Virus record (IMG/VR): IMGVR_UViG_3300017991_004311
Location: 34,937 to 98,936 of that record
DNA: 64,000 nt
Source: a virus
Direction: 5' to 3' (one strand)
Part shown: one piece after another, positions 15,888 through 52,254 of the stretch
Numbering within the stretch: the stretch's first letter is position 1
Layout: each line of letters begins with the position of its first letter
Position numbers and translations under genes: made by a program
The notes under the pieces: model-generated
What the model saw: the letters and a program-made list of their open reading frames with translations, nothing else
The model's database searches: none
What the model was told of the DNA's origin: nothing

Positions 15888-16084
15888 CCTGTGGATAAGG
15901 TGTAACCTAGCGTTACATGTTATCCACAAGTTATCCACAGACAGTCTTTAGATTTCAATCAATCCCTTTCTTGCTGAAATCCTGTAAATCCGCTCCGATC
16001 CTGCCTTGCGTCTATTCCGGGGGAAAATGGGGTTCCTTGAGCCTGTGGATAAAGTGTAACCTAGCGTTACAGGTTATCCACAGG
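15888..16084. repeat. DnaA-box/palindrome module, copy A (two elements, ~197 bp)
   Basis: Element 1 (15888-15940) has TGTGGATAA, core TGTAACCTAGCGTTACA (15901-15917), then two TTATCCACA boxes (15920, 15931). Element 2 (16042-16084) repeats box-core-box. The ~100 bp between them matches, in reverse complement, the spacer at 52101-52200 (e.g. TGTAAATCCGCT, GGGAAAATG and CGTCTATTC shared). TTATCCACA is the bacterial DnaA consensus. Candidate roles: replication origin, DnaA titration site, or recombination boundary. Confidence 0.85.
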
Positions 16085-16262
16085 GAAACGTGCAATTCCG
16101 TCAATCGCCCGTTGGAAAAGACGGGCGTTTTTCATGGAATGCGGTCCCGCTTTTTTGTTGGAATCGCGCAATCCCGCTCCAGTCTTGCGTTGCCTCCACC
16201 CCAACCTGAAATAAATTTTCTCTAATATAAGAGGGCAATGAAAAATGTGATATGGTTGAGAG
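16085..16262 (+). other. Intergenic region with terminator and partial third spacer copy
   Basis: CGCCCGT/ACGGGCG (16106-16127) followed by TTTTT is an intrinsic terminator. Downstream, 16150-16200 (TTTTTTGTTGGAATCGCGC onward) resembles the spacer of the preceding repeat module (15970-16020), as a degenerate third unit. Just before the protease gene the sequence becomes AT-rich (AATAAATTTTCTCTAATATAAG), a possible promoter -10 region, though no clear -35 is visible. Confidence 0.6.
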
Positions 16263-18482
16263 GTGAGCGCTGTGCCTGAAGAGACTGAGAGGTTCGTGAG
16301 CATCCCGGCGAAGGGGATGGCGGACCATACGAGGAAGCACCCGAGCCACAAGATCGTCACCAAGACGCTGTCGAAGCGCGAGGGGATCTCCGCGCTCTAT
16401 TGCGTGACCTGCGCGAAGATCGCCACGTACCTGTTCGAGAAGGCCAAGGGCTGGACCATGTCGAAGGCGAAGGCGTGGATGAAGCAGCACAAGGCGTTTT
16501 CCCTGGTGGAGGTCGGGGAGGCCGGTCCCGTGTTCCGGCGCATCACGGAGTCGGGCACCGAGGATGTCACCGTTCCCGTGTTGGCCGATGAGATGAAGGA
16601 GCAGGAGGCCCCGGAGAAGATCGCGGCGGAGAACCGCACCATCTTCATGTTCTCGGCGATCGAGGACGGCCTGGCGGAGCTCATGTGCCGGCGTCTGCTG
16701 GCGCTGGACAAGATCAGCGACACGGAGCCGATCACCATCATCATCTCGTCCTTCGGCGGGAGCGTGTACGCGTCCTTCGCGATCACGGACATGATGGAGT
16801 ACATTCGGGCCCCTATCGTGACTATCGGCATCGGCAAGATCATGAGCGCGGGCCTGATGATTTTCATGGCGGGCGACGAGCGCCTGGTGAGTCAGAACGT
16901 GAACATTCTGGCGCACCGGTTCTCCGCAGGCGTGGGCGGCACGCAGGCCGAGATCAAGGCGCGTCAGCGGGAATTCGACATCATCCATGACCAGATGGTC
17001 GCGCATTTCATCAAGCACTGCAACCTTACCACCAAGGAAGAGATCGAGGATACGCTCCTGCGGGAGACGGACACGTACCTGACCCCGGAGGAGCTCATGC
17101 AGTACGGCATCGCGGACAGGTTCTTCGACAAGGCGGACGACGACCGGTCGGAGACGCCCGAGCAACCCGAGAGCATTTCTCCTCCTCTTACCCCCTCGGC
17201 TGACGGCACGGTCGAGGGTAGCTCGGCGAATGACACCAAAGGGCCTCTTCCGGGCACGGGGGAGGCCCCCGAGCAGGAGATCAGGGAGGCAATCGGCGGA
17301 TCGCGCACCCTGCCGCTGGACAAGTCTTCAAAGTGGGACGGGTCCGCAGCGGAGGGGAGGATCAGGCGATGGGCCGGGGGTCCGAAGAAGGAGGAGATGG
17401 AATGGGCCCGGTACCGCAGGGCATTCGTCTGGTACGACCCCAAGCAGAAGGATGCATTTGCGGGCTATAAGCTCCCGTTCGCCGACGTGACCGGCGGCAA
17501 GCTCACGGCGGTGTGGGGAGGGGTGTCGGCGGCCATGGCCGCGGTGCTCGGTTCCCGGGGTGGAGTAAACATCCCGGACAAGCGGGCCGCGTACAATTTC
17601 CTGGCGGGCTATTACCGGAAGTTCGAGAAGAAGCCCCCGAAGTACCACACGAGCCAAAGCATATACGGATTCTACGGGTACGGGCAATACGGGTATGTGA
17701 GTGCCCAGTTCCAGAAAGCGCTCATCCTGCTGAAGCGGATGATCACGGCCGACCCCGACAGCGAGAAGCTGCGGAGGGCGTACCGGCTCCTGGACCCGGC
17801 GGTGAACCGGAGGACCGCGTTCAAGGCGATCGATTCGACGATGACGGCGGTCGCGACCCTCCAGACCGTGAAGGGCACGAAGGGGATCATCGACCTCGTG
17901 CGGACCACGCGCGGGGAGGTCATCACGCGCACCCCGCGCATCATCGAGGGCAAACCGATGGCCGGGACGTGGGCGGCCCCGGTCGACTCCGTCGATTGGG
18001 TGGAGAGCGACAGGAACAAGCCGTTCCGGTTCTCCGGGATTGCGCTGAGGACCGAGGCCGTGTCCGGGAACGGGCGCTATTATCCCCGGAAGGTCGTGGA
18101 GACGGCGGTGGCCGAGGCGCAACAGGAGGCTTCGGCCGTGCTCACGATCTGCGCCGGACACCCGGACGAGGAGGACACCAGCCCCATGTCCATCGTGGGC
18201 AAGGTGCCGGAGATACAACTGAACGACCAGGGCGAAGTCACATTTGTCGGGGAGATTGTCGATACGAGGCTGGGAGAGGATGTGCGGAAGCTGCTCAGAT
18301 TCCTCCCCGCGGGAACGCAACCATTGTCCCTGCGGGCTAGCGGCAGCACGGTGTATGAAACGGTTGGTGGGAGCCGTCGCGAGAGGGTGCTTGAGATGCA
18401 CTTTCGCGGATTTGACCTCGTGCGTCACGGGGGCGTTGTCGGTGCGGCGGTGCAGCAGGTACTCGAAAGCGGAGGTGAATAG
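16263..18482 (+). CDS. Capsid maturation protein with ClpP-like and gp21-like protease domains
   Basis: The protein has 739 aa. Residues ~115-285 are ClpP-like: SSFGGSVYASF, then GKIMSAGLMIFMAGDERL with catalytic Ser (~195) and ILAHRFS with His (~218). Residues ~360-460 hold a phage head-associated domain (SSKWDGSAAEGRIRRWAGG, YKLPFADV). Residues ~585-735 resemble the T4 gp21-type prohead protease: SGNGRYYPRKVV, AGHPDEEDTSPMSIVGKV (His) and PLSLRASGS (Ser). Scaffold, decoration and major capsid genes follow. A single chain with two different protease folds is unusual; either could process the scaffold. GTG start at the AT-rich leader. Confidence 0.8.
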   Translation: MSAVPEETERFVSIPAKGMADHTRKHPSHKIVTKTLSKREGISALYCVTCAKIATYLFEKAKGWTMSKAKAWMKQHKAFSLVEVGEAGPVFRRITESGTEDVTVPVLADEMKEQEAPEKIAAENRTIFMFSAIEDGLAELMCRRLLALDKISDTEPITIIISSFGGSVYASFAITDMMEYIRAPIVTIGIGKIMSAGLMIFMAGDERLVSQNVNILAHRFSAGVGGTQAEIKARQREFDIIHDQMVAHFIKHCNLTTKEEIEDTLLRETDTYLTPEELMQYGIADRFFDKADDDRSETPEQPESISPPLTPSADGTVEGSSANDTKGPLPGTGEAPEQEIREAIGGSRTLPLDKSSKWDGSAAEGRIRRWAGGPKKEEMEWARYRRAFVWYDPKQKDAFAGYKLPFADVTGGKLTAVWGGVSAAMAAVLGSRGGVNIPDKRAAYNFLAGYYRKFEKKPPKYHTSQSIYGFYGYGQYGYVSAQFQKALILLKRMITADPDSEKLRRAYRLLDPAVNRRTAFKAIDSTMTAVATLQTVKGTKGIIDLVRTTRGEVITRTPRIIEGKPMAGTWAAPVDSVDWVESDRNKPFRFSGIALRTEAVSGNGRYYPRKVVETAVAEAQQEASAVLTICAGHPDEEDTSPMSIVGKVPEIQLNDQGEVTFVGEIVDTRLGEDVRKLLRFLPAGTQPLSLRASGSTVYETVGGSRRERVLEMHFRGFDLVRHGGVVGAAVQQVLESGGE

Positions 18483-18485
18483 CAC

Positions 18486-51515: not shown

Positions 51516-52047
51516 GGCGGTGTTCCTGGACCGGGACGGGGTCATCTGCCCGGTGCGCGGGGCGAAGTTCCAGGACAGGCCGCAACCCGACAAGTACCTC
51601 CTGGACCCGGACGACTTCGAGCTGCTCCCCGGGGTCGCGGACGCGATGCGCGCGCTCAAGCGGGAGGGGTACCTCGTCATCGTGGTCACGAACCAGCTGG
51701 CCCCGTACCTCGGCATCGCCACCAGGGAACAGGTGGACGCGGTGAACCGCCACATGGTCACGGAGCTGGCGAAACGGGGGGCCACGATCGACGACGTGTT
51801 CTGCTGCTGCGACCTCAGCCACCGGAGGAAGCCGAGCCCGGGCATGCTGGTGGAGGCGATGGTGAAATGGGATATCGACCCGGCGCGGTCCTACGTGGTC
51901 GGGGACTCGACATGGGACCTGCAGGCGGCGGAGGCGGTCGGACTCTGCCCCGTCCTGGTCACCAGTCCGCTCAGTCCGCTCGTGGCAGAGAGCCTGCATA
52001 GGGTGGCACCCCGGCTGCTCCGGGGGGAACGGCCTCCGGTGTACTGA
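51502..52047 (+). CDS. gmhB: D-glycero-D-manno-heptose-1,7-bisphosphate 7-phosphatase
   Basis: A 181-aa HAD enzyme: AVFLDRDGVICPVRG (nucleophile Asp and general acid), VIVVTNQLAPYLGIATREQV, DVFCCCDLSHRRKPSPGMLV and YVVGDSTWDLQAAEAVG. It follows the GmhB pattern, with the zinc-loop residues partly kept (CCC and H). GTG start inside gmhA. It completes the four-step GDP-heptose pathway with gmhA, hddA and hddC. Confidence 0.85.
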   Translation: MPNNKAVFLDRDGVICPVRGAKFQDRPQPDKYLLDPDDFELLPGVADAMRALKREGYLVIVVTNQLAPYLGIATREQVDAVNRHMVTELAKRGATIDDVFCCCDLSHRRKPSPGMLVEAMVKWDIDPARSYVVGDSTWDLQAAEAVGLCPVLVTSPLSPLVAESLHRVAPRLLRGERPPVY

Positions 52048-52057
52048 TGGGATCGCG

Positions 52058-52254
52058 CCTGTGGATAACCTGTAACCTAGCGTTACACCTTATCCACAGG
52101 CTTAGGGAAGCTCATTTTCCCTCAGAATAGACGTAAGGTAGGATTGAAGCGGATTTACATTGTTTTAGCAAGAAATAAATTGATTGAAGTCTAAAGGCTG
52201 CCTGTGGATAACTTGTGGATAACATGTAACGCTAGGTTACACCTTATCCACAGG
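52058..52254. repeat. DnaA-box/palindrome module, copy B (inverted relative to copy A)
   Basis: Element 4 (52058-52100; core TGTAACCTAGCGTTACA) and element 5 (52201-52254; core TGTAACGCTAGGTTACA with two left boxes and one right box) enclose 100 bp. The reverse complement of this module aligns end to end with 15888-16084, including the spacer. It fills most of the gap between gmhB and the epimerase gene. Confidence 0.87.

What the first reader, a model, noticed from the sequence alone, without database searches (positions are those of the whole stretch)
15888..52254. Five intergenic nested palindromes carrying twelve perfect DnaA boxes
At 15888, 16042, 35098, 52058 and 52201 the core TGTAAC-(CTAGC or GCTAG)-GTTACA is flanked by TTATCCACA boxes pointing outward or inward, mostly as TGTGGATAA-core-TTATCCACA. 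Twelve exact copies of the bacterial DnaA consensus in one phage region is far beyond chance, and all lie between genes at module borders. They could be phage origins, a DnaA sink that stops host replication (like datA), or a partition/recombination site whose core binds a phage protein.
Basis: partly seen in the sequence, partly recalled or inferred. Interest (0 to 1): 0.85.

Follow-up and report, generated by a model that had tools for sequence, protein, structure and literature searches.

The report
Phage sites pairing ParB with DnaA
A ~99-kb circular phage carries, at four places between its genes, copies of a composite DNA site that looks like a docking point for the phage's own ParB protein flanked by perfect binding sites for the host replication starter DnaA, probably so the phage can take over the host's replication-start machinery; this pairing was found in no other genome searched.

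Summary
The 98.9-kb circular virus record has 15 perfect TTATCCACA boxes and six copies of one 17-bp palindrome, TGTAAC-(CTAGC/GCTAG)-GTTACA. All 15 boxes lie in the six elements and none elsewhere; 0.2 are expected in the window. The sixth element lies outside the window, ten bases after a phage gene for a ParB/Noc/KorB-type protein. I read the core as that ParB's parS-like loading site and the outer boxes as sites for host DnaA, phased about one helical turn apart. Elements at 15.9 and 52.1 kb are inverted copies of a 197-bp unit: two palindromes around an AT-rich, easily melted spacer. Palindromes stayed nearly unchanged while the spacer diverged 20%. The phage has its own helicase, primase, polymerase and SSB, but no recognisable initiator, ParA, integrase or resolvase. 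Most likely these are ParB-marked, DnaA-dependent replication-start sites; partition, KorB-like gene control and DnaA titration remain possible. Other phage ParB genes also have linked palindromes, and other phages have single DnaA-box clusters, but the combination was found nowhere else. No close relative exists in the collections, so conservation could not be tested. ParB and DnaA binding are inferred.

The parts
15888..15940 (.). Element 1: 3-box nested palindrome. Box 15890-15898 (-), core TGTAACCTAGCGTTACA 15901-15917, boxes 15920-15928 (+) and 15931-15939 (+)
   Evidence: identical base for base over 53 bp to its inverted copy at 52 kb
15940..16043 (.). AT-rich spacer of unit A (48% GC against 61% in the window); proposed unwinding region
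   Evidence: least stable 60-mer of the unit is at the 99.6th percentile of the genome; 20 of 100 positions differ from the copy at 52 kb
16042..16084 (.). Element 2: 2-box nested palindrome. Box 16044-16052 (-), core 16055-16071 (CTAGC), box 16074-16082 (+)
15839..15866 (+). Intrinsic terminator upstream of unit A, separating it from the TROVE gene
   Evidence: consensus scan
16106..16127 (+). Terminator-like hairpin downstream of unit A
   Evidence: consensus scan
35099..35137 (.). Element 3: core TGTAACGCTAGGTTACA 35099-35115 plus tandem boxes 35118-35126 and 35129-35137 (+); left box missing
   Evidence: 45 bp identical to the element beside parB
52058..52100 (.). Element 4: 2-box nested palindrome. 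Box 52060-52068 (-), core 52071-52087 (CTAGC), box 52090-52098 (+)
52099..52202 (.). AT-rich spacer of unit B (39% GC), inverted copy of the spacer in unit A
   Evidence: least stable 60-mer at the 99.75th percentile; only 1.5% of 104-bp windows have lower GC
52201..52254 (.). Element 5: 3-box nested palindrome. Boxes 52203-52211 (-) and 52214-52222 (-), core 52225-52241 (GCTAG), box 52244-52252 (+)
   Evidence: A sixth element lies outside the window at contig 23468-23517 (L008:6468-6517), 10 bp after the ParB gene at contig 22550-23458 (L008:5550-6458)

Best explanation
Each element is a composite protein-docking site. The 17-bp core is the loading site (parS-like) of the phage's own ParB-type CTPase clamp (gene g29, next to the sixth element). 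The flanking TTATCCACA boxes, two bases either side of the core and so about one helical turn apart on the same DNA face, hold host DnaA. ParB and DnaA assemble together. At the two 197-bp units, where two such sites bracket an AT-rich spacer, DnaA melts the spacer and starts phage replication with the phage's own helicase, primase and polymerase. The solo sites at 35 kb and beside parB spread ParB and DnaA around the circle or act as accessory sites. Shown: the sites, their total restriction to six elements, unequal divergence that points to selection on the palindromes, the ParB homology and adjacency, the easily melted spacers, and no recognisable initiator. Inferred: that this ParB binds this core, that host DnaA binds the boxes, and that the outcome is initiation.
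For: All 15 perfect DnaA boxes of the record lie in the six elements. The core is invariant in six copies except for the flip of its centre; boxes and core stay fixed while the 2-bp joints vary. In the duplicated unit the first palindrome block has 0 changes in 53 bp against 20 in 100 in the spacer, Fisher P = 0.0002. One element starts 10 bp after a ParB gene with ParB_N and HTH_ParB domains that matches solved ParB and Noc structures at E 1e-18 to 1e-20. Phage ParB relatives have linked palindromes: five dispersed TGTTCAGACGTCTGAACA (exact or one base off) in Aphanizomenon phage Yong-DA, one inside parB, and GCAGAYRTCTGC in 17 viral parB loci but in none of 195 control loci. Spacers are among the least stable 0.5% of the genome. 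The phage encodes a DnaB-type helicase, primase, PolIII alpha, gp32-like SSB and RecA, but no DnaA C-terminal domain, ParA, tyrosine or serine recombinase was found. ParB's N terminus carries a CFG...CxxC...C motif also present at the C terminus of the phage SSB. Fourfold-site cumulative GC skew turns at 22.2 kb, 1.3 kb from the element beside parB (P = 0.013 for the skew range; weak).
Against: No binding data; host unknown. The core is 17 bp (6-5-6) and not the canonical 16-bp parS. Two of the four loci have no AT-rich spacer. Two origin-like units plus two solo sites is more than one origin needs. GC skew does not turn at the 197-bp units. ParB without ParA is not a complete partition system. 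The phage could encode an initiator of unknown family. Only one virus species carries the elements, so no cross-species conservation supports them.
Confidence: 0.42

Rival explanations
1. Dispersed centromeres: the core is parS of an extrachromosomal (phage-plasmid) lifestyle, with ParB working with a host ParA; the DnaA boxes couple partition to replication or belong to a plasmid-type origin.
For: ParB next to a site, with dispersed sites. Dispersed centromere-like sites are described for N15, RK2, pSM19035 and pMF1 (PMC3235114). No integrase found. The record closes as a circle (113-bp end overlap).
Against: No ParA in the record. The ParB N terminus, where ParA usually docks, is a Cys-rich motif. 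No lysogeny genes recognised. A pure centromere does not need DnaA boxes.
Confidence: 0.2
2. KorB-like gene control: ParB clamps loaded at the cores silence or insulate nearby promoters, and DnaA on the flanking boxes acts as the roadblock or partner, as KorA does for KorB.
For: KorB switches from a DNA-sliding clamp to a repressor on RK2 (PMC11790492, abstract). g29 matches KorB too (8qa8, E 4e-8). Sites lie between genes.
Against: No good promoter overlaps the elements. The units sit in inverted orientation although neighbouring genes read one way. The clear strong promoters of this phage (TTGACA-N16-TATAAT repeats) lie elsewhere.
Confidence: 0.15
3. DnaA sink: multi-copy phage DNA titrates host DnaA (15 strong boxes per genome) to stop host initiation, as datA does.
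For: 15 perfect boxes, all in elements, where far fewer than one is expected; a sink works at any position.
Against: Does not explain the conserved core, the fixed 2-bp spacing, the link to parB, or the AT-rich spacer.
Confidence: 0.12
4. Recombination or mobile repeat: palindromic ends of a MITE-like 197-bp unit, or an inversion site flipping the 36-kb segment between units.
For: Units are inverted copies 36 kb apart. One core has its centre inverted. Other dispersed intergenic repeats exist.
Against: No tyrosine or serine recombinase. Divergence is concentrated in the spacer and nearly absent from the palindromes. Same-virus fragments show no inverted version. Target-site duplications were not looked for.
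Confidence: 0.06

Closest known systems
ParB/Noc/Spo0J CTPases and their parS sites
   Same: g29 has ParB_N and HTH_ParB domains and the ENxQRxDLNP motif; a short TGT...ACA palindrome lies beside the gene and is dispersed in the replicon
   Different: Core is 17 bp with an asymmetric 5-bp centre; flanked by DnaA boxes; no ParA in the genome; N terminus is a Cys-rich motif
Dispersed centromere sites of prophage N15, RK2 (KorB/OB), pSM19035, pMF1
   Same: Several ParB-type sites spread between genes, some by the par locus (PMC3235114)
   Different: Those systems have a ParA-type partner; I know of no fixed DnaA-box flanks there (own knowledge)
DnaA-dependent origins (oriC; P1 oriR, own knowledge)
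   Same: Clusters of perfect DnaA boxes next to an AT-rich, easily melted region
   Different: Boxes arranged strictly around a second protein's palindrome; two inverted units plus two solo sites; no initiator gene beside them
Single DnaA-box clusters in other phage contigs
   Same: At least 117 IMG/VR stretches hold divergent TTATCCACA pairs, often with 11-bp tandem boxes
   Different: In the 19 other records checked the boxes form one cluster, or a few within about 5 kb, apart from single stray boxes, and none has this core
datA
   Same: Cluster of strong DnaA boxes outside an origin
   Different: Dispersed, palindromic, with a ParB-type core

Membership tests
ParABS partition system | ParB with CTP-binding ParB_N and HTH_ParB domains | tested here: met
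ParABS partition system | ParA ATPase encoded with it | tested here: not met
   PF13614 absent from the record, found in 14 of 14 control genomes
ParABS partition system | parS palindrome near parB, repeated | tested here: met
   10 bp after parB, six copies
ParABS partition system | ParB binds the palindrome | not testable with these tools
   needs a binding assay
DnaA-dependent replication origin | cluster of DnaA boxes far above chance | tested here: met
DnaA-dependent replication origin | adjacent AT-rich, easily melted region | tested here: met
   met at the two 197-bp units; the two solo sites are only at the 97.6-98th percentile, mainly because of the boxes themselves
DnaA-dependent replication origin | strand-composition switch at the site | tested here: inconclusive
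   skew minimum near the element beside parB, not at the units
DnaA-dependent replication origin | initiation from the site | not testable with these tools
   needs replication profiling or a plasmid assay
Site-specific recombination site | cognate tyrosine or serine recombinase | tested here: not met
datA-type DnaA sink | DnaA boxes that reduce host initiation by titration or DnaA-ATP hydrolysis | not testable with these tools
   needs a host initiation assay
KorB-type clamp repressor | sites at or near promoters that it silences | tested here: inconclusive
   no strong sigma-70 promoter at the elements; the scan is crude

The most novel reading that the evidence does not exclude
A phage uses a ParA-less ParB clamp to capture the host initiator DnaA at composite parS/DnaA-box sites spread around its genome, converting the host's own initiation protein into a phage initiator and withdrawing it from oriC at the same time.
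Probability: 0.3. Interest if true: 0.82.

Novelty: new variant of a known kind. Interest (0 to 1): 0.62.

Why it matters
ParB clamps and DnaA are each well studied, and in bacteria they are linked mainly through ParA/Soj (own knowledge). A fixed, helically phased composite of a ParB-type site and DnaA boxes, in a phage that lacks both ParA and a recognisable initiator, would be a direct physical coupling of the two, a new use for orphan phage ParB proteins, and a handle on how a phage takes over host replication initiation. It makes the question of what ParA-less phage ParBs do directly testable.

Tried and rejected
IMG/VR scans for the core with and without boxes found only fragments of the same virus, 99.98-100% identical over their lengths. 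A scan of 84,980 bacterial and archaeal species genomes for core plus box gave four scattered hits, about what chance gives for that pattern. The major capsid protein has no phage relative in the INPHARED set; PolIII relatives in IMG/VR are at most 38% identical and carry neither this ParB nor boxes. Rejected as the main explanation: chance; a terminator or RNA hairpin (no T-run, arms never vary although a hairpin tolerates compensation, and the 35-kb site lacks one outer arm); a promoter; a recombination site (no enzyme found). Whole-genome GC skew gave only weak guidance. Proteins near other phages' DnaA-box clusters were terminase, transglycosylase, PAPS reductase or an exonuclease V-type helicase and not clear replication initiators, so that comparison neither supports nor refutes origins. 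The host could not be named. Structure prediction was not run: the sequence homology of ParB is already clear.

Full report
WHAT IS THERE. The window is bases 34,937-98,936 of a 98,936-bp IMG/VR virus record. Its ends overlap by 113 bp, so it closes as a circle of about 98.8 kb. The window holds 12 exact TTATCCACA boxes against 0.2 expected and five exact cores TGTAACN5GTTACA. The rest of the record adds one more element with three boxes, at contig 23,468-23,517. All 15 perfect boxes lie in the six elements; elsewhere there are no perfect boxes, and only three of the looser TTWTNCACA type. A search for any repeated palindrome (6-bp arms, three or more copies) returns this core as the leading family of the genome, with one other.

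ANATOMY. The plan is TGTGGATAA-2 bp-TGTAAC-5 bp-GTTACA-2 bp-TTATCCACA, with an extra TTATCCACA 11 bp further out on one side in four of the six. Centre-to-centre distances between neighbouring binding units are 9.5 and 11 bp, about one turn each, so all units face roughly the same side of the helix (arithmetic on the sequence). The 2-bp joints vary (GG, AG, CC, TG, CA), while boxes and core do not. The 5-bp centre is CTAGC or GCTAG, never anything else, so it is conserved but free to flip. The element at 35 kb has lost, or never had, its left box. At 15.9 and 52.1 kb two elements flank a spacer of about 104 bp, and the two 197-bp units are inverted copies of each other. Comparing the copies, the first palindrome block has 0 changes in 53 bp and the spacer 20 in 100 (Fisher P = 0.0002); the second palindrome has one changed joint base plus a flipped centre. 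This points to selection on the palindromes, though gene conversion could contribute. The spacers are AT-rich for this genome (48 and 39% GC against 61%) and contain its least stable 0.25-0.5%. The 15.9-kb unit sits between two terminator-like hairpins.

THE PROTEIN PARTNER. The sixth element begins 10 bp after the stop codon of g29 (contig 22,550-23,458), a 302-aa ParB-family protein: ParB_N and HTH_ParB in Pfam, several ParB-like PHROGs, and matches to solved ParB, Noc and KorB structures. It keeps the ENVQRADLNP motif of clamp-forming ParBs (reading of the motif from own knowledge). Its N terminus carries CFG-x9-C-x2-C-x5-C; the same kind of motif ends the phage's gp32-like SSB, which hints, no more, at contact with the phage replisome. 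A gene with a weak sigma-70 region 2 match precedes it. No ParA, DnaA C-terminal domain, tyrosine or serine recombinase was found in the record, while each search rang in its control genomes. The phage does encode a DnaB-type helicase, DnaG-like primase, DnaE-type PolIII alpha, SSB, RecA, a RusA-like resolvase and SbcCD, but I recognised no initiator.

COMPARISON WITH OTHER PHAGES. The exact core, or core plus box, occurs in IMG/VR only in fragments of the same virus, and core plus box in bacterial genomes only four times, about the chance level. The nearest PolIII relatives are 37-38% identical and lack this ParB and the boxes, so conservation among relatives cannot be tested. Two partial comparisons help. 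First, phage ParB relatives often have their own linked palindrome. Aphanizomenon phage Yong-DA (ParB 33% identical) has five dispersed copies of TGTTCAGACGTCTGAACA, exact or one base off, one inside parB. The related GCAGAYRTCTGC occurs 21 times in 17 viral parB loci (some near-identical to each other) and not once in 195 control loci totalling 2.4 Mb, usually inside the parB gene. L259 has three copies of TGATGTAATCATACATCA, one about 60 bp after parB. A dispersed palindrome with one copy at parB is thus what a phage parS can look like. Second, divergent or tandem TTATCCACA boxes are common in phage contigs (at least 117 stretches; 11-bp tandem spacing visible), but in the 19 other records checked they form one cluster, or a few within about 5 kb, apart from single stray boxes. 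None of the listed pairs has this core between the boxes. The combination and its spread over four loci around the genome are peculiar to this virus.

MECHANISM. My best reading is a composite ParB + DnaA site. ParB marks the phage DNA at the core; host DnaA sits on the phased boxes; the two 197-bp units act as origins because they alone have an easily melted spacer between two DnaA-bound palindromes. The solo sites at 35 kb and beside parB would be accessory or would autoregulate parB. Steps shown: sequence, unequal divergence, homology, adjacency, helix stability. Steps inferred: both binding events and the outcome. Cumulative GC skew is only a weak hint: the fourfold-site curve turns at 22.2 kb, near the element beside parB and not near the units. 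Rivals are partition with a host ParA (dispersed centromeres are known in N15, RK2, pSM19035 and pMF1: PMC3235114), KorB-like clamp repression (PMC11790492), and DnaA titration; the same binding assays and plasmid tests separate them.

NOVELTY. Each half is a known kind (phage ParB with palindromic sites; DnaA-box clusters in phages). The fixed composite, in a ParA-less phage, is to my knowledge undescribed; literature searches for DnaA boxes together with parS and phages returned nothing of this kind, within an open-access library only. I therefore call it a new variant of a known kind.

LIMITS. One virus species, known from assembled metagenomes; host unknown; gene calls are my own simple scoring; promoter and terminator scans are consensus matches; the parB adjacency is one coincidence of about 5% for four loci placed at random (own arithmetic), persuasive mainly because parS sites are known to sit by parB.

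Noticed in passing
L232, L241, L243, L246, L255, L265, L266, L272, L274, L278, L298, L299, L301, L302, L306, L307, L308; L224: A palindrome GCAGAYRTCTGC (TGTTCAGACGTCTGAACA in Aphanizomenon phage Yong-DA) recurs in 17 viral parB loci, usually inside the parB gene, and in none of 195 control loci (2.4 Mb): a candidate parS class of phage ParBs.
   Followed up: partly
window 9506-9524 and 20578-20596; contig about 3474: A second dispersed palindrome, ATTATTACCCGGTAATAAT, with three copies of its arms in the record; the two window copies lie between genes in opposite orientation. 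Possible operator of another phage regulator.
   Followed up: no
window 14037-14164: tRNA-like gene (Rfam tRNA, 42 bits) with about 55 extra bases inside, apparently around the anticodon arm; ARAGORN does not call it.
   Followed up: partly
contig 16717-16933, 18311-18544, 67365-67598 (window 32429-32662): Three copies of a ~220-bp intergenic repeat (85-91% identical), two of them flanking the DnaB-type helicase gene.
   Followed up: partly
contig 19404-19520, 20039-20155, 45700-45821 (window 10764-10885): Repeated strong promoter TTGACA-N16-TATAAT with the start of the next gene copied along with it.
   Followed up: no
window 36857-39799: A sugar ABC transporter-like trio (solute-binding protein by Pfam and two permease-like genes) inside the phage, within a glycosyltransferase/nucleotide-sugar region.
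   Followed up: no
window 14300-15793: TROVE-domain (Ro-like RNA-binding) protein just upstream of unit A.
   Followed up: no
window 63664-64000 and contig 1-2092: Many tandem 123-bp repeats in an ORF that spans the circle's closing point.
   Followed up: no
contig 22568-22633 (g29) and about 29500-29580 (g35): Shared CFG...CxxC...C motif in the ParB N terminus and the SSB C terminus; may be a common recruitment module.
   Followed up: no
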